Shown piece by piece: positions 42,577 to 59,724 of a stretch of 64,000 bases of DNA. The notes beneath the pieces are model-generated. The model saw only the letters and a list, made by a program, of their open reading frames with translations, had not been told where the DNA came from and ran no database searches. Position numbers and translations under genes: made by a program. The stretch is from NCBI RefSeq assembly GCF_014647475.1, contig NZ_BMPG01000006.1, forward strand, positions 1 to 64,000, given 5' to 3'. Within the stretch, counting starts at the first letter, position 1, and every line of letters begins with the position of its first letter. Source of the DNA: Halocalculus aciditolerans (GTDB lineage: Archaea; Halobacteriota; Halobacteria; Halobacteriales; Halobacteriaceae).

Positions 42577-43845
42577 TCACCATCCCATCAACGTCTGGAG
42601 TTCCGGCGTTGAGTTGATCAGTCCAGTTCGCGTACTCTCAACGTCTCCTTGGAGCGAATACGACCTGAACTTCCCCTGATCTCCGCCTTCCTTCTTTTTC
42701 GATTCGAGAACTCCTGTCGTCACGTGCTTGTTCAGAAGCTCAAGCGCACGATTGTACCCCTTGGGCTCTACTTCGACGTCCCGTGCTACTGTTTGGTAAA
42801 CCTCGTGAATCTCTGACGTCCGGAACCATTCTTTCTCCGGGTTATTCCGGTCAAGACGCGTGAGAGCAAACAGGAGTAATTTCCCGGACAACGGAGTCCC
42901 TTTCACCATCTCCATAAAGAGTTCAACTTCGACGAGTTCGTCAGCTTCGAGCACGTGATTCGCGGTCACGATATCGTCGCCTTCTTCGTCGGCGATCTCG
43001 CCCGCATTCCGGAACAATCGGACTGCCCGTCGAGCGTCACCGTGTTCTTCAGCTGCGAGTTCAGCCGTGGTTGGAATCACCTCGTCATCGAGGACACCGT
43101 CGTAAAATGCGTCCCGTCGATTTTCGAGGATTGCAATGAGCTGGTCTTCTTCGTACGGTGTGAACGTTCGGTGTTCTGGCTGGAGAGTCGATTGTACCCG
43201 TGACTCAATTTCGCCTTTGAATTCGATGTCGTTCGAAATCCCGATTGTAACGACTGGGAAGTCAACGTCGTCTTTTGATTGTGTCCGTGATAGCGTGTAG
43301 AGGACCTCGTTGACTTCTCCGTGCTTGTCGATTTCATCAATGATGACGACGAGGCCGCCAGAGAACTCCCTCTGAACAACGGGCCACAATTTCTGATCCC
43401 GATAATGCTCGGCTGAGAGGCCTTGATAGGGGACATCAAGCGGGTTCTCTGCTTTCGCGTTCACCTGCTCTGCAATCTTTCGGAAGGTGGAGGTATACGT
43501 AGAGATGGGGTCCGGGTTAATGTAGGCGGTAACGATCGGGGAGTCCGTTCCTGCAGTTGCTGCTTCAAGCCGCTCGCAGACGTGTCTTGCAACTAGTGTC
43601 TTCCCCGTCCCGGTTTCTCCCCACTCCAGGACGTTATCCGGGACGCTATTTGTCCGCATCTTTCGGAGATTCTTGGCCAAGAACGTGATATGGTCGTCTC
43701 GTCCGACAATTCGATTGGCGTCAGGAACGTTATCGATCTTGAGCAACCACGGTTTCTCAAAAATATCCGATTCATCTTCGCTATCGCCCTCGTCGACATT
43801 TAATATCTCGTCGACGGTGGTTTGTGTGGAATTGTTGTTTGGCAT
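42577..43845 (-). CDS. cdc6: Orc1/Cdc6 replication initiator (iteron-flanked)
   Basis: A 422-residue AAA+ initiator: Walker A WGETGTGKT at 75-83, Walker B VVIIDEID, sensor-type TIGISND, and a C-terminal winged helix. It recognises origin repeats and loads the MCM helicase. The gene is bracketed by seven matching iterons (42074-42570 and 43861-43963), marking it as the initiator for this origin. The Trp before the P-loop and the long acidic N-terminus (about 30 residues) set it apart from chromosomal Orc1. Low-GC compared with flanks. Confidence 0.92.
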   Translation of the reverse strand: MPNNNSTQTTVDEILNVDEGDSEDESDIFEKPWLLKIDNVPDANRIVGRDDHITFLAKNLRKMRTNSVPDNVLEWGETGTGKTLVARHVCERLEAATAGTDSPIVTAYINPDPISTYTSTFRKIAEQVNAKAENPLDVPYQGLSAEHYRDQKLWPVVQREFSGGLVVIIDEIDKHGEVNEVLYTLSRTQSKDDVDFPVVTIGISNDIEFKGEIESRVQSTLQPEHRTFTPYEEDQLIAILENRRDAFYDGVLDDEVIPTTAELAAEEHGDARRAVRLFRNAGEIADEEGDDIVTANHVLEADELVEVELFMEMVKGTPLSGKLLLFALTRLDRNNPEKEWFRTSEIHEVYQTVARDVEVEPKGYNRALELLNKHVTTGVLESKKKEGGDQGKFRSYSLQGDVESTRTGLINSTPELQTLMGW

Positions 43846-46396: not shown

Positions 46397-46534
46397 CTGC
46401 CAGATTTGATCGTCGCGTATCCTCCTTTAAATGCCATCAAAGCCTTTAGCTGCTGTCTCAATCCTGACCAAAATCATACTCTGGGTATATACAGACCAAA
46501 GACTTATTTGGTATCTGGAGTATGGTATTGGTAT

Positions 46535-47593
46535 ATGAGGCCGAATGTTGACATTCCGTGGTCCATCCATGGGAGAATCAAGGAGCACGCAGAGCAGACT
46601 GACCAAACAATCGAGGAAGCGTATATCGAGACCCTTGAGAACGGAGTCCGAGATCTTCCCGAACAGCGGGGAGAAGTCACTCTTCCACGCCCCGGTTACA
46701 ACGATTTTGGGCCACGACTTATTCGAACGCAAGGCACGGACTCCCCGGACATCAATGACTCAGTGACTTTCCATCCGTTTTTCCACCTCGGTGAGGACTC
46801 GATGGAAATCCGAACACGGACGGATGATATGGATGTCGATGAGTTCACAAACCGATTGGCAAAACTCCACAACGTAGGAAGACTCAGCACGTCTTGGTTC
46901 ACAGTTCATCAGCTGGGTGGAGCACTCGTCGGTCGGGGGCCTGCTAACCTTGCCACGGCAGTCAGAGAGGCCCACGCCACGTTCGCTGATGAGGACATTC
47001 CGACATACAAGAATGGACACCTCATCTATATTGCTAACCTCGCCTACGAAGACGAATACTTGCTTATCAGGGCGGAACTTCCCCGCCCATCCCGTGACAA
47101 ACAGCTACTTTCAAATGTAGAACTCCGGTTCATCACGGAAGGCGTTCCCGTTACTGGAGCACTCTATCAACGCCTGGCTCGCGCCTTTGGTTTTAATGAA
47201 CTATTCAATGCCACGGCATTCGATCTTCCACGAACGGGATTCAACGCACCAGAGGGTAGCACACCAGCTGTCACTGAACAGATCACCACGGAAGAGGAGA
47301 ACTACGACGACCCAAGTGTTAACGGGATTATCATCGAGAATCCATTACAGAATAACGACGATCTCCTTTCTCATCTCAAATCAGAACTTGGCGGATCTGA
47401 TCGATCTAAATCAGAAGCAGAACACCATATTGAGGTGTTAGCAAATTACGACGAGCTGTACTGTGATCTCACTCACAACCACGGATTGTCTGAGGATCGG
47501 GAGTATGAATTCAAGGGATTATCTGCGACATACATCAAGCCTCTTTTCAACCGAAACAGTACGTGGAATCTTACAGCCAGTGTCAGCTGGTGA
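46535..47593 (+). CDS. Hypothetical protein with RHH-like N-terminus
   Basis: The ATG at 46535 (MRPNVDIPWSIHGRIKEHAE) is preferred over 46406 because the upstream part lies in promoter-like AT-rich DNA. The 352-residue product starts like a ribbon-helix-helix DNA-binding segment (strand then EHAEQTDQTIEEAYIETLEN) and continues into a ~300-residue alpha/beta region with no recognised motif. AT content is higher than the surrounding replication genes, suggesting separate transfer. It may be a regulator or a phage-derived protein; function unknown. Confidence 0.6.
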   Translation: MRPNVDIPWSIHGRIKEHAEQTDQTIEEAYIETLENGVRDLPEQRGEVTLPRPGYNDFGPRLIRTQGTDSPDINDSVTFHPFFHLGEDSMEIRTRTDDMDVDEFTNRLAKLHNVGRLSTSWFTVHQLGGALVGRGPANLATAVREAHATFADEDIPTYKNGHLIYIANLAYEDEYLLIRAELPRPSRDKQLLSNVELRFITEGVPVTGALYQRLARAFGFNELFNATAFDLPRTGFNAPEGSTPAVTEQITTEEENYDDPSVNGIIIENPLQNNDDLLSHLKSELGGSDRSKSEAEHHIEVLANYDELYCDLTHNHGLSEDREYEFKGLSATYIKPLFNRNSTWNLTASVSW

Positions 47594-48099: not shown

Positions 48100-49044
48100 C
48101 TATCGGCCTCCTGTCCCGGTCGCGGTCCACGCATCGAGCAAGGGGTCCGCGGTGGCCGCCACCGTCTCACCGTCAGCTGTGACGCCTGTCCCGACACCCT
48201 CCGGAGTCGGCGTCGACGGCGTCGGAGTTGTCGGTTCCACGCCGACCTGCGTGGCGCGTGCCGCGAGCAGCTGCCGCCAGTACGCGAACGTCGTCTGGTA
48301 GTACGCGCCGTCGTCGACGGGATAGACGAGCGTCTCGAAGTCCTCGCCGACGACCCGTGGGCCCATCCGAGTTTGCTCGCACTCGAGGTGATGGTCGGTG
48401 ACCGTCGCGACTGGCTCGGTGAATTCGTTTCGTTCGTTTCGCGTAACGATCGCCGGGATGTCGTACCCATCGGCGTAGGTCGCCAACCGGGCGAGGGTTC
48501 GGGCCTGGAGGGTTTTCGCGTGAGTCTCGTCGAGGGTATCGTCGACGCGGTACTGGGCGTCGACGGCCGGCGCGACGATGAGGGCGGGCGTGTGGGGCGA
48601 TGTGTCCTCGTCACGACCTGGTGCCCCTCGACCGGCCGCCCCGGCATCGACGGTGGACCTCTGGATCGACTTGTTCACCGCTGACGGGAGACCACAGACG
48701 GCGCCGTAGTGCTGGTAGGCGGTAAAACCGCGTGCCACGTGGATTCGGTTGAGCAACCGTTGACTGGGCGCGATCTGAGCGAGTGTCGTCGTCGTCGCGT
48801 GTCCATTTGCGTCGACCCAGAAGGCGGGCCCGTCGTGCAGGAGGAGATGGTCGAGCACGAGCGACTGCATGATCGGGACGCCACGGCCTCCCTCGACGTC
48901 GAGCAGCGTGATGCCGTCGTCGAGCTGTGGCAGCAGCATCTCGTCTGTAGTCGGATCGGCCTGGTCAGCGAGGGACTGATTGCGGTCAGCTCCCCGTGTC
49001 GGCTGGTCCACCGCCAATCGGTTCGACGTTGAGTGTTCTCCCAT
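48100..49044 (-). CDS. RecA/RadA-fold protein with degenerate P-loop
   Basis: The 314-residue protein has the strand-helix pattern of the RecA fold: ITLLDVEGGRGVPIMQSLVL in the Walker A place (GGRG instead of GxxGxGKT), AFWVDANGHAT, RIHVARGFTAYQHY, and LIVAPAVDAQY in the Walker B place. Such RadA-like proteins are frequent on haloarchaeal plasmids and may act in partition, recombination or as DNA-binding scaffolds without ATP use. The C-terminal ~40 residues are Pro/Thr-rich. First gene of a two-gene operon. Confidence 0.6.
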   Translation of the reverse strand: MGEHSTSNRLAVDQPTRGADRNQSLADQADPTTDEMLLPQLDDGITLLDVEGGRGVPIMQSLVLDHLLLHDGPAFWVDANGHATTTTLAQIAPSQRLLNRIHVARGFTAYQHYGAVCGLPSAVNKSIQRSTVDAGAAGRGAPGRDEDTSPHTPALIVAPAVDAQYRVDDTLDETHAKTLQARTLARLATYADGYDIPAIVTRNERNEFTEPVATVTDHHLECEQTRMGPRVVGEDFETLVYPVDDGAYYQTTFAYWRQLLAARATQVGVEPTTPTPSTPTPEGVGTGVTADGETVAATADPLLDAWTATGTGGR

Positions 49045-49208
49045 ACTCGACTAGTTGTCTACGTTCCCGATAAGCCGCGGCGTGGCGCTTCCGTGTTTCA
49101 GGGAAGGGCTGGAAGGTATGTAGAACCGGACTCAGGCAACGGATTTCTGCCATCGTTTGACCGTTTCCGAGAACGTTTCCAGAGAGGAAGGCAGACAGCA
49201 TCGTCGGA

Positions 49209-49250
49209 TTAACCAACAGTCCAGAGGATCACGGCTCAATTGTTGGTTAA
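49209..49250. repeat. TTAACCAAC palindrome, copy 8
   Basis: Perfect arms (49209-49217, 49242-49250) around 24 bp, between the 3' end of gene 49322-50764 and the start of gene 48100-49044. Confidence 0.85.
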
Positions 49251-49321
49251 GACTCTCCGAACCCATGGTGATCTCGCCCTCACGTAATTCGGTTGACGGC
49301 CCCGCATATTCCCCGAGCCTA

Positions 49322-50764
49322 CTATCTGATGTGATCGACGATTGTTCTCAGCGCGGTTACATCGTCGTTATTGTACTGTTTGAGTCGATCCCAGTCTGGT
49401 TCTTCGCCGTCGAGGAGATATCGCGTGTACTTGCTCCCGACCACAAATCCATCGACGGTCGGGTCTTGATATTCAAAGCCGAGTGCGCTCGCTACGACGT
49501 CCAATTTATGCCGATTGAAGGGCCCGAATAGTTCCTGTTGGGAAGTTATCCCGAGATCGTGTGCTCGCTCCAGATGGTCGATCCCCTCATTGATGCCGTG
49601 TTCGTCGAATCTCCGACTGAGACACTGTTCGTCGAAGTAGTTCCCTCCGTAGTAGATGATTGGCTCGGAGCCGTGCTCATCAAGGTACTCAGACAGCTCC
49701 TGAAGGAGTGCTGACTCGTCGTCCGGCTCGAAGAATTGTCGGTACGCATCGTTCTGGTAACTGTAGGTGCCGACCAGCCAGATCCGATCCTGCTGAAGAT
49801 CCGTCTCTATGTCTAAGAGGAGCGGGTTCGTATCGTGAAGGTCGTCGAAGGCGGACTTGTTTAGAATCACGACCTCATCGTTTTCGAAAGCCTGTCGATG
49901 CGCAAGCCACCGGTCCACGTGCCATGACGAGGCTCCAGGGAGGGCTTCGAGTTCGGCACGCCGTTCTTCGGTAATCTCATCTGGGCTAGTGATCCCTAAC
50001 TCACTGAACTGTTCCACTCGGTTTCTCCCTACCTGGACGAGATCAGTCAGCCGGCTCCCTAGCAGATGGCGAGTGTCGTAGAACTCGTACTCGATAGACT
50101 CGTTCGAGGCGTCGATGGTGATGAGCGCGTACCTTCCTGGGTCGTCTACTCCGTCGTGGGACGCAATGTTGATCACCGTGCCGTACTCGAGGGCTTCAGC
50201 TCTGCCTCCGAATTGATGGCAATGACCGCAGACGGTAGCTGGGGGCTGGATGTCGTCTATGAAGCTCCTGACGGCCTTCGACCCGATATGTTGTTGCCCG
50301 AATCGCTTCCCGATATCGAGAATGCCGAAGGGAGGAGTGTGTGTGACAAGAATCGGAGTTCTGTCTTCACAAGCGGTGCGGTGTTCAGAAAGGTGCCGTT
50401 GGACGTCGTCCTCGGTATAGGTGATGAGACCAGGTCCCTGGGTTGATCCTTCCTGGCCGATGAACACGAGATCCTCGTAGATGTATGGTGTCCTGTGGAG
50501 GTCGGTGGTAAATTCCGAATCGAATTGCGGACCGGTTGACGGAGGGAAGTCGTCGTTTCCTCGGACATAGAGCGATTGTTGATGCTTCGTGAGGCGAGCA
50601 AGTTCTGCCAGATGATCTGTGTCAGTATCAGCGTTTTTGAAACGTGAAAGGTCGTCGCCGGCATACAGTAGTAGATCTGGAGTTGGTTCTACAGTTTCGA
50701 GAATGGTGTAGAGATCGTCAATAGGCTGAGAGCGCCAGTCAGATACAGCGAGAATGTGGGTCAT
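49322..50764 (-). CDS. Metallophosphoesterase-HhH-DEDD exonuclease fusion
   Basis: The 480-residue protein joins an N-terminal calcineurin-like phosphoesterase (VSDWRS, YAGDD, RGNDD, VTHTPP, CGHCHQFGG: the full D-GD-GND-H-GHxH set), a helix-hairpin-helix-like region (about 245-290, LGITSPDEITEERRAELEAL) and a C-terminal RNase H-like exonuclease (LLDIETD, YYGGNYFDE, YNNDDV: DEDD acids). The last part resembles YprB-type nucleases. Two nuclease modules joined by a DNA-binding linker suggest DNA end processing, repair or defence. Both active sites look intact. Confidence 0.75.
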   Translation of the reverse strand: MTHILAVSDWRSQPIDDLYTILETVEPTPDLLLYAGDDLSRFKNADTDTDHLAELARLTKHQQSLYVRGNDDFPPSTGPQFDSEFTTDLHRTPYIYEDLVFIGQEGSTQGPGLITYTEDDVQRHLSEHRTACEDRTPILVTHTPPFGILDIGKRFGQQHIGSKAVRSFIDDIQPPATVCGHCHQFGGRAEALEYGTVINIASHDGVDDPGRYALITIDASNESIEYEFYDTRHLLGSRLTDLVQVGRNRVEQFSELGITSPDEITEERRAELEALPGASSWHVDRWLAHRQAFENDEVVILNKSAFDDLHDTNPLLLDIETDLQQDRIWLVGTYSYQNDAYRQFFEPDDESALLQELSEYLDEHGSEPIIYYGGNYFDEQCLSRRFDEHGINEGIDHLERAHDLGITSQQELFGPFNRHKLDVVASALGFEYQDPTVDGFVVGSKYTRYLLDGEEPDWDRLKQYNNDDVTALRTIVDHIR

Positions 50765-50851
50765 TTTGGTTGAGCGTAGTTAGTGTACCCTCTTCTATCG
50801 TTTGTTAAGGGGGTACCGTTTGTCATTAGGAGATTCTTCGCCCCGTTGTCG

Positions 50852-50893
50852 TTAACCAACAACTCAGGCTTATCGGGACAATCTGTTGGTTAA
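50852..50893. repeat. TTAACCAAC palindrome, copy 9
   Basis: Perfect arms (50852-50860, 50885-50893) around 24 bp, between the divergent nuclease and SRAP genes. Confidence 0.85.
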
Positions 50894-50947
50894 CGGTGAG
50901 ATTCCTGTGCGACCACGTTGAAGATGCTTCCCTCCGAACTCATCGGT

Positions 50948-51634
50948 ATGTGTGGCCGGAACTCGCTCTTCATCGACCAAGCAGACCTTGAGGCCCGCTT
51001 CGATGCCGAGGTCGTCGCGGACGGAGGCTATACACCCCGATACAACATCGCGCCTGGCGACGACCTCCACATCGTCACGAACGAGGCTCCAGACGAGATC
51101 GACGCCTACCACTGGGGACTGATTCCGTTCTGGGCGGATGAGCCCGAGGAGGGTATCATCAACGCTCGCTCCGAGACTGCCGACGAGAAACGCGTCTTCG
51201 AGCGGGCATGGGAATCACGTCCTTGCCTCGTCCCCTCGTCAGGATTCTACGAATGGAAATCGCCGAACGGCGGTTCGAAACAGCCCTACCGGATTCATCG
51301 CGAGGACGATCCCGCGTTCGCGATGGCTGGGCTCTGGGACGTCTGGGAGGGCGACGACAAGACGATCTCGTGCGTCACGATTCTCACGACGGAGCCGAAC
51401 GACCTGATGAACTCAATCCACGACCGGATGCCGGTCGTCCTCCCGCAGGACGCGGAATCTGACTGGCTCGCCGCAGACCCGGACACCCGCAAGGAACTGT
51501 GCCAACCGTACCCGATGGACGATCTGGACGCCTACGAGATCTCGACGCGGGTCAACAACCCCGGCAACGACGATCCCCAGGTCATCGAGCCACTGGATCA
51601 CGAGCAATCGGGCCTCGGCGAGTTCAGTTCCTGA
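50948..51634 (+). CDS. SRAP-domain protein (HMCES/YedK family)
   Basis: ATG 50948 is fixed by the family: the initiator Met is removed to expose Cys2 (MCGRN). The 228-residue protein also has RYNIAPG, WGLIPFWA, NARSET, PSSGFYEW (catalytic Glu) and the HDRMPVVL His motif. SRAP proteins crosslink to abasic sites in ssDNA and shield them from breakage. It fits the surrounding replication and repair genes. Confidence 0.93.
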   Translation: MCGRNSLFIDQADLEARFDAEVVADGGYTPRYNIAPGDDLHIVTNEAPDEIDAYHWGLIPFWADEPEEGIINARSETADEKRVFERAWESRPCLVPSSGFYEWKSPNGGSKQPYRIHREDDPAFAMAGLWDVWEGDDKTISCVTILTTEPNDLMNSIHDRMPVVLPQDAESDWLAADPDTRKELCQPYPMDDLDAYEISTRVNNPGNDDPQVIEPLDHEQSGLGEFSS

Positions 51635-51652: not shown

Positions 51653-52681
51653 TTACTGCATCGGCGACGCCGTCGCCGAATCGACGAGCGAGTACTCTCG
51701 GTCCCGACTCGTCCCTTCCGCCTCGAGGAGATTGTACTGCTCCATCTTCGAGAGGTACGTGCGGATAGTCCGTTTCGTCCGCGGATCATCGACGTCCTCG
51801 GTATAGCGCTCGTGAATCTCGCTCGGCCCGACCGGGCCGTGCTCGCGTACGATGTCGTAGACGACGCGCTGGTGCGGCGTGAGCGAGTCGAGGCTCTTCT
51901 GCTTGATCTGGGCCCGAGCATCCTCGGCGGCGTCCAGGAGAATGTCGTCGGTGATGCGCTCGTGGTTCTCCCGATCGGCCTTGCCGGCAGCCGTTCGGAG
52001 GATGCCGATTGCGAGGCGAGCGTCGCCGGCGGCCGCGTCGGCGATCCGGTAGAGCTGGTCGTCGGTGATGACGTCCTCATCGAGTCCCCACTTCGCCCGC
52101 GCACTCAGAATGTCGTACAGCTGCTCGTCGTGGTACTTGTCCATCCGGACGTGTTCGCTGGAGCGCAGCCGGCTCACGAGGCGGTCGTCGACGCGGCTGA
52201 ACAGCTCCTCTTCCTTGTTCGCGATGCAGATGATCGCGAACTGTGGGAGGCTGTGGAGGTCGTAAATGACGCTGGGGTCCTCCAGTTGGTCGACCTCGTC
52301 GAGAATGACGACGGTTCGCGGGCCGTCATGCTGCTGGAGGCGATCGACGAGTTCGTCATGGGGCGTCGACTGCCGGTGGATGTCGATGGTTGCGCCGAGG
52401 TCGTCGAGGATCTGGTAGAGCGTCCGGAACCGGGTGTAGTTGCGCCAGCAGTTGACGTACGTGGTCTCGACGTCGAGGACCTCTTCGCGGAGCCTTTCGG
52501 TGACGAACTTCGAGATGCACGTCTTGCCGGCGCCGCTGGGTCCAGTGACGATGGCCGTGTCCGCGGGTTCCCCGTTCGTGATGGGCTCGAGAACGCTGGA
52601 GAGGTGGTTGACCTCGGCGTCGCGATGCTCAACTTCCCGAGGGACGAACCCGGCGCGGAGAACGCGAGCATCGCGGATCAT
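51653..52681 (-). CDS. cdc6: Second Orc1/Cdc6 family protein
   Basis: A 342-residue AAA+ protein with Walker A GPSGAGKT at 47-54, Walker B VVILDEVDQ, sensor FAIICIANKEE and a C-terminal winged helix (GPVGPSEIHERYTEDVDDPR). It differs clearly from the iteron-flanked Orc1 and lacks that gene's iterons; instead TTTCCGGGAA nonamers lie in its upstream region. It may serve a second origin or regulate the first. A TATA box (52711-52720) about 30 bp before the ATG implies a leaderless mRNA. Confidence 0.92.
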   Translation of the reverse strand: MIRDARVLRAGFVPREVEHRDAEVNHLSSVLEPITNGEPADTAIVTGPSGAGKTCISKFVTERLREEVLDVETTYVNCWRNYTRFRTLYQILDDLGATIDIHRQSTPHDELVDRLQQHDGPRTVVILDEVDQLEDPSVIYDLHSLPQFAIICIANKEEELFSRVDDRLVSRLRSSEHVRMDKYHDEQLYDILSARAKWGLDEDVITDDQLYRIADAAAGDARLAIGILRTAAGKADRENHERITDDILLDAAEDARAQIKQKSLDSLTPHQRVVYDIVREHGPVGPSEIHERYTEDVDDPRTKRTIRTYLSKMEQYNLLEAEGTSRDREYSLVDSATASPMQ

Positions 52682-52905: not shown

Positions 52906-52940
52906 CGCTTTTGAACCTCTGCCACATTATCTGTTTTAAG

Positions 52941-54962
52941 ATGGAGCCCGAGAGCGATTTCACAGATTTGGAACTCCCTAGGGTCATCGACACCTCTTCT
53001 GATGACCTAATGCAGGATTTCTATATCCCCCTTCTCTCACGAGCTAAGGTCTATCGACGCGGTGTCGGATACTTCACTACAAATTGGGTCCGGTCTGCAG
53101 CACGAGGAATAGCGGAACTTGCTGAAAATGGCGGTACAGCGCAGTGGATAATGAGTCCTATTTTGGAAGAAGATGACTGGGAGGCTCTTAAGAAGGGGAA
53201 CCGTGCTAAAACGGATGAGGTCCTCCGAGAATCGCTAGATAGCACGATTTCTGATCTGCGGTATGATTTGGAGTATGAAACTCGCAATGCGATCGCGTGG
53301 ATGATCGCCGATGGTCTACTCGAAATCAAGCTAGCTGTTCCTTCGAAGAAGCTGTCGGGTGACTTCCACGATAAATTTGGGGTGTTCTATGACTGGAATG
53401 GGAATCGTGTTGCTTTCCATGGCTCCCAGAACGATAGCGAACAGGCTCTCCGGAATTACGAAGCATATACTATTGACTGTGATTGGATAAGCGACCGCGA
53501 TAATGAGGGGGTGAATATGCAAAAAAAGCGGTTTGAGAACCTTTGGGAAGGTCGAGATGAGAATGTCGGGGTCCATACAATCCCAGAGGGGGTTAAGGAG
53601 GGAATCGCTGAACTCCGGGATAATAACAATCGACCTTATGAACCGCCAGAATCAGTTGCTACCACCGAATCTGAAATTGTTCTCCGAGATTATCAACGGG
53701 ACGCTGTTGATTCCTGGTTCGAGAATGACAACAGGGGCCTATTCCAGATGGCAACTGGAACAGGCAAGACGTTCACAGCTCTAGCGGCACTTGATGAATA
53801 CACAGATACCGTAGATGATCCACTTCTTTGTGTAATTGCTGTCCCTCAGAAACACCTCGCTCGGCAGTGGGCCCAGGAGATGGAAACGTTCGGGCTTGAC
53901 CAACCAAAATTTGTCTATCACTCAGCTAATCCGGACTGGAAAAACGATCTCTCCCGAGCGGTTTCAAATTTAGAACTCGGAATCAAGAATTACGAATGCC
54001 TGATTACAACTCATCAAACATTCTCCGGAGAGCACTTTCGAGAGAAAGTGAGTCAGCTTTCTCGGGATACAATCCTCATCGGGGACGAAGTACACGGCCT
54101 GGGTTCCGAGGGTAGGCGAAAAGGCCTTCTTGATTCCTATGATGCGAGGATAGGGCTATCAGCGACTCCGGAGCGCTATTATGATGAAGAAGGTTCTAAC
54201 CACCTGCTTGACTATTTTGACGGGGTCATATACGAATACCCGTTAGAAGACGCCATTCCGCAGTATCTGACCCCATATCGGTATCATCCCATTATTGTTG
54301 AAATGGATGAAGACGAGTTGGAAGACTATCGTCAAATGACTCAGTCTGTAGTCGCATCAAGATACTCTGAAGATGCGGATGAAGAGACAACAAATATTCT
54401 CCAATCACAACGCGCAGAAATCGTTAAAGAAGCGATCAACAAGTACGATGTCCTCCGGGATATCCTTCGAGGTTTAGATGATATCAAGCACCTCCTAGTC
54501 TATACTAACTCAGAACAGATAGACACAGTCGGGTCGATTCTGAATGAATTTGGGGTTATGCATCATCGGTTTACTCATGAGGAGGGTGATGACCTGCGCG
54601 AGGAGTTACTCACCCGGTTTGGGGAGGGTGAATACGAGGCCCTTGTGGCAATGCGGTGTCTAGACGAAGGTGTTGACGTTCCCGCTACTAGGACAGCAAT
54701 CCTGATGGCTAATACCGGGAACCCGATGCAATTTATCCAGCGCCGAGGTAGGGTTCTTCGTCAAGCCCCCGGTAAGGATCGTGCGGATATCTATGACTTA
54801 CTCGTTGTTCCAACTCTTGAACCAGATGATGATATTGCGATGTCTGAACAATACATTCTCGAGAAGGAACTACGTCGCTTCGAGGAATTCGCTGAAACAG
54901 CCGAAAATGAATATGAAGCCCGCAACAAAATCGAAGACGTTCGTATCGCATATGGTATCTGA
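52941..54962 (+). CDS. PLD-nuclease/SF2 helicase of defence island
   Basis: ATG 52941 fits the TATA box. The 673-residue protein has an N-terminal phospholipase D-like domain (HDKFGVF with GSQNDS, about 155-185: a single HxK motif) and an SF2 helicase core: MATGTGKT (Walker A, ~270-277), GDEVHG (DEAD-type box), GLSATP (motif III) and QRRGRVLR (motif VI). The combination is typical of restriction-like defence helicases that translocate on DNA and cut. It heads the AT-rich cluster of ATPase, methyltransferase and deaminase-like genes. Confidence 0.88.
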   Translation: MEPESDFTDLELPRVIDTSSDDLMQDFYIPLLSRAKVYRRGVGYFTTNWVRSAARGIAELAENGGTAQWIMSPILEEDDWEALKKGNRAKTDEVLRESLDSTISDLRYDLEYETRNAIAWMIADGLLEIKLAVPSKKLSGDFHDKFGVFYDWNGNRVAFHGSQNDSEQALRNYEAYTIDCDWISDRDNEGVNMQKKRFENLWEGRDENVGVHTIPEGVKEGIAELRDNNNRPYEPPESVATTESEIVLRDYQRDAVDSWFENDNRGLFQMATGTGKTFTALAALDEYTDTVDDPLLCVIAVPQKHLARQWAQEMETFGLDQPKFVYHSANPDWKNDLSRAVSNLELGIKNYECLITTHQTFSGEHFREKVSQLSRDTILIGDEVHGLGSEGRRKGLLDSYDARIGLSATPERYYDEEGSNHLLDYFDGVIYEYPLEDAIPQYLTPYRYHPIIVEMDEDELEDYRQMTQSVVASRYSEDADEETTNILQSQRAEIVKEAINKYDVLRDILRGLDDIKHLLVYTNSEQIDTVGSILNEFGVMHHRFTHEEGDDLREELLTRFGEGEYEALVAMRCLDEGVDVPATRTAILMANTGNPMQFIQRRGRVLRQAPGKDRADIYDLLVVPTLEPDDDIAMSEQYILEKELRRFEEFAETAENEYEARNKIEDVRIAYGI

Positions 54963-55006
54963 GAAGATACATTGATATGCGTTTGTAGATATGGTTGCAG
55001 TATCGC

Positions 55007-55210
55007 ATGAATGACTCCGAGGTACATTCGTTAATCCTTGACCGTGTTGACGAGGTTGAGGATGACGATCTTCGGGCCTTCTTACGCGGGGTTTTGGAGC
55101 ATGAACGGGACATTCTGAAAGAGCCGCGAGCCGAGTACGCTGAGCAGTATAAAGAGCTCGTGGACAACTTTGTCGGGAACGAATCACTGCAGGAATTCGA
55201 CAATGAATAA
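55007..55210 (+). CDS. Small acidic protein between helicase and ATPase
   Basis: ATG 55007 gives 67 residues (MNDSEVHSLILDRVDEVEDD). It is a helical, Glu/Asp-rich protein and its end overlaps the start of the next gene by 8 bp. It may be a regulatory or adaptor subunit; no family recognised. Confidence 0.65.
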   Translation: MNDSEVHSLILDRVDEVEDDDLRAFLRGVLEHERDILKEPRAEYAEQYKELVDNFVGNESLQEFDNE

Positions 55211-57203
55211 CGTTCAGATATTCGAACTCGAAATAGAGGATTACCGGCAATATGAAGGAAATCAAACGATCCCCTTAGAGACCACGTCAGAGAAGCACAT
55301 CAACGTGATTGAGGGGCAGAATGGATCTGGCAAGTCAAACATTCTGAACGCGATTACGCTGTGTTTCTACGGGGAAGAAACCCATACTGATTCGAACGAT
55401 GACGAGGGCCTCGAGTCGGACCCGCTTGTTAACAAGAAGCGGCTGAAGGAATTGGAACCTGGTGAATCGATTCAAGGGCACATCGAGATCAAGCTGGGTA
55501 AAGGCGAACCCGAGTACGCCTTCCGACGAACTTTCTCGACAGCTCGTCAAGAAGATGCTGCAGAAGGAGACCGCGAGGAACGACAATTTAACAGCTCTAT
55601 AGGTGACCTTCGGTTACGCCAGCGGTTTGGGGGGAATGACTGGCGACCGAACCCGAACCCTGAAAATATTCTTCGCGAGATTCTCCCAACTCACGTCCAT
55701 GAATATTTCCTGTTCGATGGTGAACAGCTGGATGAGTTCTTCCAAACTGGATACACCGACCATGTACGGGCAGCTGTGCTCGATGTATCTCATATTGAAC
55801 TTCTGAATAGTGCTGTTAGTCATTTAGGGAAGGTACAGCGGGACTTTGAGAGTGAATCTTCCGAGCTAGGCGGTGATATACAAGAACTCCAGGAACGGAA
55901 GGAAGAAGCCTCACAAGAGCTAGAACGCCTGAAACAAAAGCGGGATGACTTAGAGGACGAGATTGACACCGCTGAGGGCAAAATAGATGACATCTATGAT
56001 GAGCTTGCGGGTAGTGCAGACGATGACGTTCGAGAGATGCAGCAGCGGCGTGTCTATCTGGAAGAACGCCTGGATGAACAGGAAGAGGAGCTTGTAGAGG
56101 CGAAAGAGGCTGTAGGGGCATCACTCGCCCGAGCGGGCGGGATTGCATACAACGCTGATGCCCTCCGATATGCTGTTTCTGAATTGGAAGAGTACGAATC
56201 GTCACAAAATGGTGTCCCTGGGCTAACAGAGGAATTACTTCGAGGGATTCTTTCTCGGGATACGTGTGTTTGTGGGACTGACTTGGCCGAATGTGACTCT
56301 TCACGAGAACACATTGAGGACCTGTTGGAAGAGCAAACTAGTGAAAGTCAAGATGCAATTGAGGGGCGGCTCCGGATGGAGCGAGCACTCCGTGATGGCG
56401 AATCGCTTATTGAAGATCTCCTGGCTGACCTCAGCGAGCTAGAGGATACACGGACAGCTATCGACGAGAACGAGACAGAACTGGCCAACATCTCTGCTCA
56501 GCTTGAAGACGAAGATATCATCGATAATGAACGCGCCCAGGAACTAGAGCAACGCCGTCGGGATATCCAAGGTAGAATCAGTAAGATGGAACGTGAAGTT
56601 GGGGAACTGAACGGGAAAATTGAACAACAGGAAGATGTCGTTGATGAGCGTCGGGAGGAGTGGAAACAGGCAATGCGCGAGCAGGACGAACATGACCTCC
56701 TTGTGAGACAGAGTGAGTTCATCGACAGTGCGACTGACAAACTCACTGAGATTAAACGAGAGATTCTGGAGCAGGTTCGAACGGAAACTGAACAACGGCT
56801 CGAACGGTACTATAACGATCTAATTTGGAAAGATGAAGATTATGAGGTCGTCCTCACTGAAGAGTATGAGGTCCGTCTCTACGGTCCGGACGGTCGAAAG
56901 AATCTAGGTTCACTATCTGCTGGCGAACGACAAGTGCTTGCTCTCTCGTTTATGGCTGCACTTTCCAAAATCAGCGGATTCTCCGCCCCTGTTGTCATCG
57001 ATACACCCTTGGGACGGATATCTAGCGAGCCGAAACAGCTTATCGCGCAGAACGTACCTGACTACCTGAATGATACCCAGGTCACGTTCCTCATGACTGA
57101 CGTCGAGTATAGTGAAGACGTCAGGGCGTACATTTCCAACGAGGTTGCGAATGAGTACCATCTTGAATTCCAAAACGGTGTAACACAGGTGACCGACCGA
57201 TGA
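55203..57203 (+). CDS. DndD/SMC-like coiled-coil ATPase
   Basis: ATG 55203 gives 666 residues. Walker A lies at 38-45 (GQNGSGKS), then two long coiled coils (about 215-300 and 390-540) around a Cys-containing hook (TCVCGTDLAEC), the ABC signature LSAGERQ and Walker B VVIDTPLG near 600-620. This is the plan of DndD/RecN-type ATPases, which in phosphorothioation and related defence systems sense DNA ends or modification state. No dndC sulfur-transfer gene is present, so classical phosphorothioation is unlikely. It is coupled to genes on both sides. Confidence 0.88.
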   Translation: MNNVQIFELEIEDYRQYEGNQTIPLETTSEKHINVIEGQNGSGKSNILNAITLCFYGEETHTDSNDDEGLESDPLVNKKRLKELEPGESIQGHIEIKLGKGEPEYAFRRTFSTARQEDAAEGDREERQFNSSIGDLRLRQRFGGNDWRPNPNPENILREILPTHVHEYFLFDGEQLDEFFQTGYTDHVRAAVLDVSHIELLNSAVSHLGKVQRDFESESSELGGDIQELQERKEEASQELERLKQKRDDLEDEIDTAEGKIDDIYDELAGSADDDVREMQQRRVYLEERLDEQEEELVEAKEAVGASLARAGGIAYNADALRYAVSELEEYESSQNGVPGLTEELLRGILSRDTCVCGTDLAECDSSREHIEDLLEEQTSESQDAIEGRLRMERALRDGESLIEDLLADLSELEDTRTAIDENETELANISAQLEDEDIIDNERAQELEQRRRDIQGRISKMEREVGELNGKIEQQEDVVDERREEWKQAMREQDEHDLLVRQSEFIDSATDKLTEIKREILEQVRTETEQRLERYYNDLIWKDEDYEVVLTEEYEVRLYGPDGRKNLGSLSAGERQVLALSFMAALSKISGFSAPVVIDTPLGRISSEPKQLIAQNVPDYLNDTQVTFLMTDVEYSEDVRAYISNEVANEYHLEFQNGVTQVTDR

Positions 57204-57658
57204 GTCAAGATACCGAAGACAGCTACGAGGAACGTGAACCCCGGCGTGACGTCCATATAGATAGCGAACGGCGAGAAATGTTTGAGGCGTTGCAGGAATC
57301 TGAGGATTCTCCCTTCTATCAGGCTGAGAATCACGATCTGTTCATGTTCGCCCTTGGATATGGGAGAGAGAACACAATGCCTGAAACGATAAAGAATGAA
57401 AAAGGCGCGTTTTTCGGGCGTGCGAGTCTCTCGGAACGCCAGCAGGCTGTTATCGAGGCTGTGGCAGTGAGTGAAGAGAGAGATGTTCGCGTTCTTCGTG
57501 ACCAGCGGATGGTCTATGAAATCGCAGAAGAGTACGCTAATGCGGGAATCGAATTGCTACACGGTCGAGTATTTGGTCCGGCAGATGACGAACCACGGCG
57601 GGAACTGGCTCTCGAGGTCAAAGAACAGTATCAGCCAGAGGAGGACGACGAACCGTGA
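57200..57658 (+). CDS. Small defence-island protein (Dnd-associated protein 4-like?)
   Basis: A 152-residue protein coupled to the ATPase gene by ATGA. HDLFMFALGYGRENTMPETI and the helix VIEAVAVSEERDVRVL recall the small proteins called dnd-associated protein 4, which accompany DndD-like ATPases; the resemblance is from memory and modest. It probably works with the ATPase. Confidence 0.55.
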   Translation: MSQDTEDSYEEREPRRDVHIDSERREMFEALQESEDSPFYQAENHDLFMFALGYGRENTMPETIKNEKGAFFGRASLSERQQAVIEAVAVSEERDVRVLRDQRMVYEIAEEYANAGIELLHGRVFGPADDEPRRELALEVKEQYQPEEDDEP

Positions 57659-57754
57659 GTCGTCGTCGAATATTATTGCGAAGTCCACTAGTAGTACCCC
57701 GAGAAACAAACGTAACAACGATGGAACCCCCACTCTGTCGGAGGGATCTGATTC

Positions 57755-59119
57755 ATGGATGAGAATCTATCTGAGGTTGATGAGGAAGTTCGAGGTGTCA
57801 TAGAAATTATAGCTCAGCACATCAGTCATCAAAACAATTCTACCTCTCTTACGGATTTCGTGGACGAAGTCGGGGAGGCTAGTAGTGTTGATGATCTGTA
57901 TGATTATCTCCTTGACAACCCGAAAGCTGCGGTCAATCTAGTCGGTGATTTAGAGGAGTACTTCGATCACCCTGCTCCTGACTTGGAGAAACTGAAAGAA
58001 GGACAAGGCGAATTCCCTGCTGATACTGAGCCTTGGTGGAATGTCGTAGAGGCCGACGCAGCGAAAATCCATCCCAAAGATGGAGGAAGTGAAAACCAAG
58101 AGAATGCGATCGATCTCGGCAAGAATTCCGTCGATCTTATCGTCACTTCTCCCCCTTATTGGCAAAAGCGAGACTATGGGACCGAAGACCAGCTGGGACA
58201 GGAGCCTGACCCGGATACCTATATCGAGAACTTAATCGATGCACTAGAGCACTGGAAAGTGTTTCTTCGGCCTACTGGGTCTGTGTTCCTTAACATCGGC
58301 GACACATACCATAATAAAAGCCTTCAGGGAATCCCTGGTCGGTTTGCAAGGGCGGCTCAAGAGGCGGGATGGACTATTCGGAACGAAATTCAGTGGGCTA
58401 AGGATAATGGAATCCCGTCTTCAGCCCAGGATCGGCTTGTCCCACGGCATGAGCCAATATTCCATTTAGTCCAAGACAAAGATAATTATTTCTACGACTT
58501 GCACGGCTATTCAGAGCTATACGGAAATGGATCTAACCCGGGAGACGTATGGCGCATCTCTCATGATCGAAATACTGGAGATCACCTTGCTCCTTTCCCA
58601 CGGGACCTAGTGCGGAGGGCAATCACGCTTGCATGTCCCCCTTCAATCTGTTCCGAGTGTAATGAGCCTCGACGTCGGGATACGAAGCGAGGATTAACAG
58701 AGCTCAATACGGATCGTCCGCAGGCAGAGCGGGCATTGGAAATTTACCATAATCACGACGAATTGACAGAGGACCATATCCGAGCCATTCAGGCCGTCGG
58801 GATTTCTGACGTGGGGAAAGCAGAGGAATTCCAAGTTGGTGCGGGAGCAAACGATGAAGATGTTCAGCGTCGTGCTAAGAAGGCAAAAGAAATTCTAGGT
58901 GGTTACTTCCGTGAGTTCACTTTCCCTGAGTGGACTACTGTCGGATGGACGAGCTGTGAGTGTGAGGATCCTGGTTGGACTAGGGGAACTGTCTTTGACC
59001 CATTTGCTGGCTCTGGAACCACCATCCAAGTTGCGAACAGTCTCGGATATAATGGATTTGGGACAGACTTAGATACTTCCAACTTCCAACAGGACCAAGC
59101 ACTGTCCACATACAAATGA
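57755..59119 (+). CDS. Beta-class DNA methyltransferase (N4C or N6A)
   Basis: The 454-residue protein has motif IV DLIVTSPPYW (about 126-135) before motif I FDPFAGSGTT (about 421-430), i.e. beta-class order, typical of N4-cytosine or N6-adenine methylases. A zinc-ribbon-like insert (CSEC...CECE, about 298-405) and an ~80-residue acidic N-terminal extension are present. It likely marks self DNA for the neighbouring helicase and ATPase. Its stop overlaps the next gene (ATGA). Target sequence cannot be read from here. Confidence 0.88.
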   Translation: MDENLSEVDEEVRGVIEIIAQHISHQNNSTSLTDFVDEVGEASSVDDLYDYLLDNPKAAVNLVGDLEEYFDHPAPDLEKLKEGQGEFPADTEPWWNVVEADAAKIHPKDGGSENQENAIDLGKNSVDLIVTSPPYWQKRDYGTEDQLGQEPDPDTYIENLIDALEHWKVFLRPTGSVFLNIGDTYHNKSLQGIPGRFARAAQEAGWTIRNEIQWAKDNGIPSSAQDRLVPRHEPIFHLVQDKDNYFYDLHGYSELYGNGSNPGDVWRISHDRNTGDHLAPFPRDLVRRAITLACPPSICSECNEPRRRDTKRGLTELNTDRPQAERALEIYHNHDELTEDHIRAIQAVGISDVGKAEEFQVGAGANDEDVQRRAKKAKEILGGYFREFTFPEWTTVGWTSCECEDPGWTRGTVFDPFAGSGTTIQVANSLGYNGFGTDLDTSNFQQDQALSTYK

Positions 59120-59724
59120 CGAGATACGTCCTGAAACCTGAAGTCGTACGAGATTGTCTCCACCGGTTAATCGATGCCCCTATCCACCGGATGTTTCCTG
59201 GATATCTTTGTCTCCAGCAACAATCCGGGCTCGATAACCGGAACACTGGACTCTCCTTTCCCTATAACGAATTTTTCGACGATTACCTCCGTGTCGGGGA
59301 GGATGATTCGGATAAGCCCTATTTTGTCCCCTTCAATCAATCAACAAACCCGTCGATGAGTTCTCTCTGGTATAATAAGAACGTCGCCGGTACATATGCA
59401 CCTTCCTCCCTTCGATCAACTGCCCCACTTATGCAAATCGCCGAAGTTGAGGAAGGAGGACATAATTCGAAATGGGGTATTGAAGATCGTCATTGGCAGC
59501 TTGCCCGCCACCACCTTTGTGATGACAATCAAATCCCCGCAGAATCTCTGTCTGCGTATCTGTTCCGCGACTATGGATTTGAGGTGGACGACCCTTCTGC
59601 TTATACTCTTGTTGAGACATTTATTGAGGAATTTGGCTACGAATTTGGTGGAGAAGCTTTCTCCCACTTGTACAGAACTAGTGATTCAGAAATAACGGAG
59701 GAGTCATTTGTCACCAATGACTGA
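59116..59724 (+). CDS. Unknown protein of defence island
   Basis: A 202-residue protein overlapped at both ends (ATGA with the methyltransferase; 8 bp with the deaminase-like gene), so it belongs to the operon. It has a Tyr/Pro-rich N-terminal part (FPGYLCLQQQSGLDNRNTGL) and a helical acidic C-terminal half. No family recognised; it could be a specificity or adaptor subunit. Confidence 0.6.
   Translation: MTRYVLKPEVVRDCLHRLIDAPIHRMFPGYLCLQQQSGLDNRNTGLSFPYNEFFDDYLRVGEDDSDKPYFVPFNQSTNPSMSSLWYNKNVAGTYAPSSLRSTAPLMQIAEVEEGGHNSKWGIEDRHWQLARHHLCDDNQIPAESLSAYLFRDYGFEVDDPSAYTLVETFIEEFGYEFGGEAFSHLYRTSDSEITEESFVTND

What the first reader, a model, noticed from the sequence alone, without database searches (positions are those of the whole stretch)
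49322..50764. Fusion of phosphoesterase, HhH and DEDD exonuclease
A complete calcineurin-like active site and a complete RNase H-like set (DIETD, NYFDE, NNDD) are joined by a helix-hairpin-helix-like linker. I know the parts separately (SbcD-like, YprB-like) but not this order in one chain. It is probably a DNA end-processing or defence nuclease.
Basis: partly seen in the sequence, partly recalled or inferred. Interest (0 to 1): 0.52.

Follow-up and report, generated by a model that had tools for sequence, protein, structure and literature searches.

The report
Plasmid-borne two-nuclease fusion protein
A salt-loving archaeon carries, on a mobile DNA element, one protein that joins two DNA-cutting-type enzymes through a DNA-binding hinge; near-identical and very distant copies occur in scattered archaea and a few bacteria, often as movable cargo, and it may help destroy or clean up DNA ends, for example of invaders.

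Summary
The fusion is real: one 480-aa ORF (window 49322-50764, minus strand) with a calcineurin-like metallophosphoesterase (MPE) half, a helix-hairpin-helix hinge and a C-terminal DEDDy exonuclease half; a confident model (pLDDT 90.7) supports all three. The MPE site is not fully canonical: motif I is DxR, not DxH, in 22 of 22 relatives, and GNH is GND in 21 of 22. The other metal-binding positions and the DEDD set are kept. Purifying selection holds it (dN/dS 0.07-0.22). The same architecture occurs, very patchily, in other archaea and a few bacterial MAGs. In the window it fills a sharply bordered cargo slot inside a plasmid-borne PolB2 translesion cassette (Cdc6-SRAP-[slot]-iRadA-PPB2-PolB2). 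In 20 cassettes without it, that slot holds other genes: GmrSD, short Argonaute plus REase, nucleotidyltransferase plus HTH, Fic, or an unknown 196-aa gene. The MPE half matches PADLOC's candidate PDC-S10; distant relatives lie beside restriction-modification genes, a HerA/PglZ cluster, or Ku plus ligase. Best reading: an exchangeable one-gene DNA end-processing nuclease, more likely anti-invader than part of the PolB2 machine; function untested. No described family with this architecture was found. New variant of a known kind; interest about 0.5.

The parts
49322..50764 (-). 480-aa MPE - HhH - DEDDy exonuclease fusion (P0001)
50075..50764 (-). metallophosphoesterase half, residues 1-230
   Evidence: Pfam Metallophos; model fits 2yvt Z 23.3 over 1-232; PADLOC PDC-S10 27-205, E 7.3e-19
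49865..50074 (-). helix-hairpin-helix hinge, about residues 231-300
   Evidence: HHH_5 in relatives; profile match to Rad51 N-terminal domain and L32e; helical in the model
49325..49864 (-). DEDDy 3'-5' exonuclease-like half, residues 301-480
   Evidence: RNase_H_2; MrfB; B-family polymerase proofreading domain 5mdn Z 16.9 over 311-480
49106..50914 (.). variable cargo slot that the gene fills; homology to MPE-less cassettes stops at its borders
   Evidence: iRadA-side border at 49105 in 14 of 20 cassettes, SRAP-side border 50900-50946 in 13 of 20
48100..49044 (-). iRadA-like gene (no Walker A) of the PolB2 cassette
   Evidence: assignment mainly by order and by PMC11791011
47774..48097 (-). 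PPB2-like gene, begins with MGRT
   Evidence: the MGRT motif is described in PMC11791011
44020..46209 (-). PolB2-type DNA polymerase; motif C reads IVDS, first Asp of DxD lost
   Evidence: PMC11791011 section 3.1
42577..43845 (-). Orc1/Cdc6 replication initiator of the cassette
   Evidence: 99% identical copies annotated orc1/cdc6
50918..51634 (+). SRAP (HMCES-like) gene flanking the slot (annotated copies start about 30 bases further in)
   Evidence: Pfam SRAP E 4.4e-68
51653..52681 (-). second Cdc6-type gene of the cassette
   Evidence: TIGR02928 above cut-off
52911..57203 (+). PbeA- and PbeC-like genes (archaeal phosphorothioation-linked defence), cargo on the far side of Cdc6
   Evidence: PADLOC E 9.1e-228 and 1.9e-220

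Best explanation
A one-gene DNA end-processing nuclease carried as exchangeable cargo. The HhH hinge holds DNA; the DEDDy half trims 3' ends; the MPE half, an atypical two-metal phosphodiesterase (DxR, GND), cuts or de-blocks ends that the exonuclease cannot start on. On haloarchaeal plasmids it occupies a slot otherwise used by restriction, toxin-type and unknown genes, so its most likely role is to degrade invading or competing DNA (or broken ends of it) rather than to serve the PolB2 machine beside it. Shown: fusion, folds, conserved catalytic positions (with two substitutions), purifying selection, slot borders and slot contents. Inferred: nuclease activity, substrate, division of labour, defence role.
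For: Domain and fold evidence. Conserved sites: D9, R11, D37, N70, H142, H181, H183 in 22 of 22 rows with the MPE part; D318 and E320 in 21 of 21; D468 in 20 of 20; Y464 in 12 of 12 short forms. dN/dS to 12 copies 0.07-0.22. The same C-terminal half (hinge plus exonuclease) is that of TIGR03491, whose N-terminal part is a RecB-like nuclease by the family's name; MPE stands in its place (only profile 214-460 matched), which suggests that MPE too is a nuclease. Slot: borders in 20 MPE-less cassettes; contents include GmrSD (L101, L111), HTH plus DUF6036 nucleotidyltransferase (L104, L106, L116), REase-APAZ plus short Argonaute plus Mrr-like (L120), Fic motif (L108), unknown 196-aa gene in 9. MPE half matches PADLOC PDC-S10 in P0001 (7.3e-19), L072, L092. 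Independence from PolB2: in L038 and L039 the gene is intact while iRadA and PolB2 are fragments; beside L040 (85% identical) no cassette gene is found. Neighbours of distant relatives: C5 methyltransferase (L077, L082), N4/N6 methyltransferase plus MvaI/BcnI (L089), GmrSD (L083), HerA plus PglZ-like plus GNAT (L080).
Against: No activity or phenotype is known. Two canonical MPE histidines are replaced, so that half could be weak, specialised or non-catalytic. Repair-type neighbours exist: Ku plus ATP-dependent ligase directly upstream in L092, HhH-GPD glycosylases within about 8 kb in L072, L077, L082, and the PolB2/SRAP genes in the window. The commonest slot occupant (9 of 20) is a gene of unknown function, so the slot is not shown to be defence-only. 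Neighbours were chosen by eye, in 12 of 21 non-cassette loci, without a background rate. PDC-S10 is only a candidate family. Other relatives lack the catalytic Tyr (8 of 8 rows that are not short forms).
Confidence: 0.48

Rival explanations
1. Accessory of the PolB2 translesion machine: the exonuclease half supplies the 3' end trimming or proofreading that PolB2 lacks, and the MPE half removes blocked ends, next to SRAP which protects abasic sites.
For: It lies directly upstream of iRadA-PPB2-PolB2 on the same strand in the window and in most close copies. PolB2 and its partners are damage-induced, and orc1/cdc6 and SRAP are enriched beside polB2 (PMC11791011, sections read). Pfam finds no proofreading exonuclease domain in the window's PolB. 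The best exonuclease fold match is a B-family polymerase proofreading domain.
Against: 20 of 20 examined further cassettes with a close iRadA lack the gene and hold other genes in that place. The gene is intact where iRadA and PolB2 are broken (L038, L039) or not found (L040). No polB2-like gene was found by tblastn beside any of the distant relatives. There is a 277-bp gap to iRadA. PMC11791011 does not mention a phosphoesterase or nuclease neighbour.
Confidence: 0.17
2. Double-strand break repair nuclease: it cleans DNA ends before joining, alone or with Ku and ligase, as Mre11 or MrfB-type enzymes do in other pathways; it travels on plasmids as a fitness gene.
For: Ku and an ATP-dependent ligase lie directly upstream in the Methanobacteriaceae locus L092, same strand, 209 bp from the ligase. 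MrfB, the nearest solved exonuclease, repairs mitomycin damage (PMC11194089, abstract start and passages). Mre11 is among the nearest MPE folds.
Against: One locus of 12 with scanned neighbours; extreme patchiness (1 of 151 genomes in the phylum of L092, the locus's own genome) argues against a core repair role. Canonical histidines are replaced.
Confidence: 0.2
3. The MPE half hydrolyses a nucleotide or cyclic nucleotide signal (as MPPED2 or GpdQ-type enzymes do, recalled) and the exonuclease half acts on RNA; the protein is a regulator, a toxin or an inhibitor of a signalling defence.
For: MPPED2 and GpdQ are close folds (Z 19.1 and 17.6). Toxin-type genes (Fic motif, nucleotidyltransferase plus HTH) use the same slot elsewhere.
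Against: The HhH hinge points to DNA. The same hinge and exonuclease are joined to a RecB-like nuclease in TIGR03491. No partner antitoxin or cyclase lies in the slot in the window.
Confidence: 0.12
4. An ordinary fusion without special role: passenger gene kept by the plasmid family.
For: Remnants and truncated copies exist (L041 to residue 401, G275 split, G136 and G140 remnants).
Against: dN/dS 0.07-0.22 over up to 15% protein divergence; catalytic positions kept in relatives at about 30% identity.
Confidence: 0.03

Closest known systems
TIGR03491, TM0106 family RecB-like putative nuclease (NCBIfam)
   Same: Hinge plus RNase_H_2 half: P0001 239-477 on profile 214-460, E 2.7e-15; relatives L072 and L076 even pass the family's cut-off on that half alone
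   Different: The N-terminal part (profile 1-213) is not matched; an MPE stands there. P0001 scores 56.3 bits against a cut-off of 97.45
MrfB / YprB exonuclease of Bacillus subtilis (8un9)
   Same: Best solved relative of the exonuclease half by profile (E 1.5e-6); DEDD acidic set
   Different: MrfB is DEDDh with His258 and has a C-terminal TPR domain (PMC11194089); here the fifth residue is Tyr464, there is no TPR, and an MPE and HhH precede
Mre11/SbcD and the aq_1956, TT1561, MPPED2 group of metallophosphoesterases
   Same: Same fold over residues 1-232 (2yvt Z 23.3; Mre11 chains Z 16 to 19)
   Different: DxR and GND in place of DxH and GNH; no Rad50/SbcC partner in the cassette; fused to HhH and exonuclease
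PADLOC PDC-S10 (candidate phage defence family)
   Same: MPE half, residues 27-205, E 7.3e-19
   Different: PDC-S10 model is 223 positions long and matches the MPE half only; P0001 adds HhH and exonuclease. No paper with this name found
PolB2 mutasome cassette (iRadA-PPB2-PolB2 with orc1/cdc6 and SRAP; PMC11791011)
   Same: Physical neighbourhood of the gene in the window and in close copies
   Different: The gene is an exchangeable occupant of a slot, not a constant member

Membership tests
TIGR03491 (TM0106) | whole-protein score above 97.45 bits | tested here: not met
   P0001 56.3 bits; relatives L072 118.2 and L076 117.6 pass, L074 89.1 and L092 90.9 do not
TIGR03491 (TM0106) | N-terminal RecB-like nuclease part | tested here: not met
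   profile below about position 210 unmatched in P0001 and in 4 of 4 MPE-type relatives scanned; MPE found instead
TIGR03491 (TM0106) | C-terminal HhH plus RNase_H_2 half | tested here: met
MrfB/YprB | DEDD acidic residues | tested here: met
   D318, E320, D378, D468
MrfB/YprB | His as fifth residue (DEDDh) | tested here: not met
   Tyr464 in 12 of 12 short-form rows; His258 in MrfB from PMC11194089
MrfB/YprB | C-terminal TPR domain | tested here: not met
   P0001 ends with the exonuclease domain at 479-480
Mre11/SbcD | calcineurin-like MPE fold | tested here: met
   Z 16 to 19 with Mre11 chains
Mre11/SbcD | canonical DxH and GNH motifs (recalled) | tested here: not met
   DxR in 22 of 22 rows, GND in 21 of 22
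Mre11/SbcD | Rad50/SbcC partner gene next to it | tested here: not met
   neighbours in the window and annotated copies are SRAP and iRadA; the SMC-like gene at 55170 is PbeC/DndD
PolB2 mutasome component | constant presence in the cassette | tested here: not met
   absent from 20 of 20 examined further cassettes, 20 of the 23 best iRadA rows (left out: the window itself, G221, G099)
PolB2 mutasome component | physical interaction | not testable with these tools
   -
PADLOC PDC-S10 | similarity to the family model | tested here: met
   E 7.3e-19 over 27-205
PADLOC PDC-S10 | MPE-only protein of about the model's length | tested here: not met
   480 aa with two further domains; model length 223
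anti-virus or anti-plasmid defence system | restriction of an invader | not testable with these tools
   needs plaque or transformation assays

The most novel reading that the evidence does not exclude
A previously undescribed, widely scattered one-gene anti-invader system: an HhH-tethered pair of a new metallophosphoesterase subclass (SDWR motif, Arg in place of the metal-binding His of motif I) and a DEDDy exonuclease that together degrade foreign DNA, spread as a cassette cargo that interchanges with GmrSD, short Argonaute and toxin-type modules on haloarchaeal plasmids.
Probability: 0.33. Interest if true: 0.65.

Novelty: new variant of a known kind. Interest (0 to 1): 0.5.

Why it matters
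If it is a nuclease, it is a compact case of two unrelated DNA-cutting folds working on one hinge, and of one module (HhH plus exonuclease) paired with alternative front nucleases. The haloarchaeal slot, with known defence genes among its alternative occupants and clean borders, is a natural experiment: candidate defence genes can be read off it and tested in Haloferax. The Arg-for-His change in a metal-binding motif, fixed across archaea and bacteria, is a testable biochemical oddity.

Tried and rejected
Viral origin: no relative in viral contigs (33 pattern matches, 0 confirmed) and no match over 80% of the query in the phage records (5 weak hits in the MPE half). Structure search against viral proteins gave only partial or generic matches. 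Genes near distant relatives were clustered by BLAST: apart from the family itself, mainly HhH-GPD glycosylases (L072, L077, L082), C5 methyltransferases (L077, L082) and GmrSD (L083 with slot gene L101) recur, plus one small gene shared by L086 and L089; the output was cut, so part of that list was not seen. A direct BLASTP of iRadA with the genome's RadA failed (one search used the wrong strand); a profile of 11 rows against RadA gave only a weak match (E 0.0011, probability 20.8%); the PDB profile search of iRadA gave nothing. So iRadA rests on gene order, the lost Walker A and PMC11791011. The long form (L081, 747 aa) was folded with 5 rows: pLDDT 76.3, pTM 0.58; not searched further. Six haloarchaeal proteins sharing only the C-terminal half have an N-terminal part that neither Pfam nor TIGR03491 names, so a RecB-like front there is not shown. 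PDC-S10 in print: one search, no paper. Literature for the fusion: nothing describing it; subscription papers are mostly not held.

Not done: a background rate for defence genes in the neighbourhoods; neighbours of L070, L073, L078, L079, L081, L084, L086, L087, L088 were not scanned for families; supplementary tables of PMC11791011 could not be read.

Full report
WHAT IS THERE. The ORF at 49322-50764 lies on the minus strand and codes for 480 residues. The window is bases 1-64000 of a 118,558-base contig of a genome of 27 contigs; its nearest named copies are haloarchaeal. Pfam finds Metallophos at 3-184 (E 5.6e-9) and RNase_H_2 at 316-479 (E 7.8e-22). An AlphaFold2 model from 15 family sequences has mean pLDDT 90.7 and pTM 0.83. 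Its residues 1-232 fit the metallophosphoesterases aq_1956 (2yvt, Z 23.3), TT1561 (Z 21.7), MPPED2 (Z 19.1) and Mre11 (Z 16 to 19); residues 311-480 fit the proofreading exonuclease domain of B-family polymerases (5mdn, Z 16.9, 161 residues, 2.4 A). The helical middle, 231-300, is a helix-hairpin-helix domain by relatives and profile: HHH_5 in L090 and L077, and Rad51 N-terminal domain and ribosomal L32e in a PDB profile search.

ACTIVE SITES. In an alignment of the family, the 22 rows that hold the MPE part all have D9, R11, D37, N70, H142, H181 and H183; D71 is kept in 21 (Ala in L078). The usual motifs of this superfamily are D-x-H and G-N-H (recalled). D318 and E320 are in 21 of 21 rows with that part; D378 in 19 of 20 (Glu in L077; alignment unsure in the long forms); D468 in 20 of 20; Tyr464 in 12 of 12 short forms, and Ala, Arg or Val in 8 of 8 other rows. 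The short form, to which the window's protein belongs, is therefore DEDDy.

RELATIVES. In 292 genomes of the class, 117 match the protein, but most only in the C-terminal half; 7 carry one unbroken match over almost the full length (G000, G066, G029, G045, G260, G258, G167), others are truncated, split or remnants (G232, G275, G203, G136, G140), and two more, G179 and G039, match only in the MPE half. Thirty-eight plasmid records match, 10 of them over at least 80% of the query, with identities of 85 to 97% in genera of several families. A scan of 84,980 species genomes gave 34 loci, 18 haloarchaeal and 16 others: MAGs named Nanoarchaeota, Nitrososphaeria, Nitrososphaerales and Thaumarchaeota, Methanonatronarchaeales, Methanobacteriaceae, Archaeoglobaceae, Calditenuaceae, Lokiarchaeota and another Asgard, Nitrospira, Acidobacteria, Bacteroidetes and unnamed archaea. 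Outside haloarchaea it is rare: 4 of 250 genomes of the class of L076, 1 of 151 in the phylum of the Methanobacteriaceae locus, 1 of 245 in the phylum of the Nitrospira locus, at E 1e-40 or better, the starting genomes counted. A tree of 19 rows groups Nanoarchaeota with Nitrososphaeria (100/99), Archaeoglobaceae among the long forms otherwise of Nitrososphaeria and unnamed archaea (100/100) and Bacteroidota with Lokiarchaeota (100/100), which suggests transfer, with the warning that MAG binning can mislead. A long form of 747-910 aa with an insertion in the MPE part exists.

SELECTION. Against 12 copies, dN/dS of the whole gene is 0.07 to 0.22; for the most distant, L040, it is 0.11 at dS 0.76. 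Values per domain are mostly below 0.3, with single higher values where differences are few (exonuclease part of L059 0.55, hinge of L062 0.64, hinge of L039 0.31).

WHERE IT SITS. Annotated copies show Cdc6 - SRAP - this gene - a 945-nt gene - a small gene - B-family polymerase - Orc1/Cdc6 or an AAA ATPase (others are partial or rearranged). The polymerase in the window has IVDS in motif C, the 945-nt gene lacks a Walker A motif, and the small gene begins MGRT. These are the marks that PMC11791011 (introduction and section 3.1 read; passages) gives for PolB2, iRadA and PPB2; that paper also reports orc1/cdc6 and SRAP near polB2. Its text holds no word beginning with 'phosphoesterase' or 'nuclease'. 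The iRadA identity is otherwise only weakly supported by sequence.

THE SLOT. iRadA relatives are much commoner than the fusion: 179 of 292 genomes match iRadA at E 1e-5, distant homologues included. I fetched 20 of the 23 best iRadA rows (91-95% identical), leaving out the window's own, G221 (too near a contig end) and G099 (not chosen). None of the 20 has the fusion; G066, lower in the list at 90%, has it. DNA similarity to the window stops at 49105, 61 bases before iRadA, in 14 of 20, at 138-149 bases in 5 and at 42 bases in 1; on the other side it stops at 50900-50946 in 13 of 20, the rest having no such whole SRAP neighbour. The gene thus fills a slot of about 1.8 kb with sharp borders. 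Slot contents elsewhere: an unknown 196-aa gene in 9 of 20; GmrSD-type genes in L101 and L111; HTH plus DUF6036 nucleotidyltransferase in L104, L106 and L116 (families scanned in L104, the other two by likeness of sequence; the DUF6036 match, E 3e-4, is below its Pfam cut-off); REase-APAZ plus short Argonaute plus an Mrr-like gene in L120; a Fic motif in L108; unknown in L105, L113, L117 and L118. L102, L109, L110, L112 and L115 carry further genes beside the 196-aa gene. On the other side of Cdc6 the cargo also varies: PbeA/PbeC in the window, TIR and restriction genes, DUF499 and DUF1156 genes, a Druantia gene; in L041 a ThiF/SAVED pair lies between Cdc6 and SRAP (annotations).

INDEPENDENCE FROM POLB2. 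In L038 and L039 iRadA and PolB2 are reduced to fragments while the fusion is intact; dN/dS to the window is 0.13 and 0.17, and between these two 0.35 from 22 differences. Beside L040, 85% identical, none of the cassette genes is found within the 14 kb held on each side. No window cassette gene other than the fusion was found by tblastn beside the distant relatives, apart from one weak match in L088.

NEIGHBOURS OF DISTANT RELATIVES. I looked at gene neighbourhoods in 21 non-cassette loci and scanned chosen neighbours in 12. Five have restriction, modification or defence-type genes: L077 (C5 methyltransferase, PDC-M33A), L080 (HerA, weak PglZ-like, GNAT; the set resembles the HerA capture system in PMC12839542, passages only), L082 (C5 methyltransferase), L083 (GmrSD), L089 (N4/N6 methyltransferase, MvaI/BcnI). 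One, L092, has Ku and an ATP-dependent ligase directly upstream. HhH-GPD glycosylases lie within about 8 kb in L072, L077 and L082. L071 has an integrase next to it; L074, L076, L090 and L040 gave nothing telling. There is no background rate, and the choice of proteins was by eye.

MECHANISM. The hinge and exonuclease half are those of TIGR03491, where the front part is a RecB-like nuclease by the family's name; here an MPE takes that place. By analogy the MPE is likely a nuclease or end-cleaning phosphodiesterase, the hinge a DNA grip and the DEDDy half a 3'-5' exonuclease. MrfB, the nearest solved exonuclease by profile, works on ssDNA and dsDNA ends (PMC11194089, passages). The slot, PADLOC PDC-S10 and neighbours favour an anti-invader role; Ku-ligase and the PolB2 cassette favour repair. 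I weigh anti-invader end-processing at 0.48, repair of breaks at 0.20, PolB2 accessory at 0.17 and nucleotide-signal or RNA enzyme at 0.12.

NOVELTY. No paper describing this architecture was found in the searched library; public annotation calls the copies 'ribonuclease H-like domain-containing protein', 'metallophosphoesterase' or 'hypothetical protein'. The parts are known, the combination and the DxR/GND subclass appear new: a new variant of a known kind. Other papers were seen only as passages (PMC10853773, PMC10818511, PMC12458937) or in search listings.

Noticed in passing
window 46406-47593: A 395-aa gene of unknown family on the plus strand sits between PPB2 and PolB2; in several of the 20 further cassettes PolB is also pushed 3.5-5.5 kb away from iRadA (L106, L108, L113, L116, L117, L120), so the PPB2-PolB2 gap looks like a second cargo slot.
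   Followed up: partly
window 52911-59724: PbeA/PbeC-like genes with a type II-like methyltransferase (57755-59119); L119 carries the same block at 99-100% protein identity, next to a cassette without the fusion, so cargo on the two sides moves separately.
   Followed up: partly
L103 9176-9766 (minus) and like genes in 8 more loci: An unknown 196-aa gene with no Pfam or PADLOC match is the commonest occupant of the slot that holds the fusion in the window: a candidate for the same kind of role.
   Followed up: no
L061 and L067; L062 and L063: Two cassette copies with the fusion lie on one plasmid in Halorientalis marina and in Halosimplex aquaticum; G090 has two iRadA copies on one contig.
   Followed up: no
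L080 7553-9658: The Halorientalis regularis copy has a C-terminal extension of about 200 residues with cysteine pairs that look like zinc ribbons (by eye).
   Followed up: no
L092 5502-9202: Ku, ATP-dependent ligase and the fusion in a row in a Methanobacteriaceae MAG: a possible archaeal end-joining operon with its own nuclease.
   Followed up: partly
L041 14001-15368: The Haloplanus copy matches only to residue 401 and continues with a different end, with a ThiF/SAVED pair inserted nearby.
   Followed up: no
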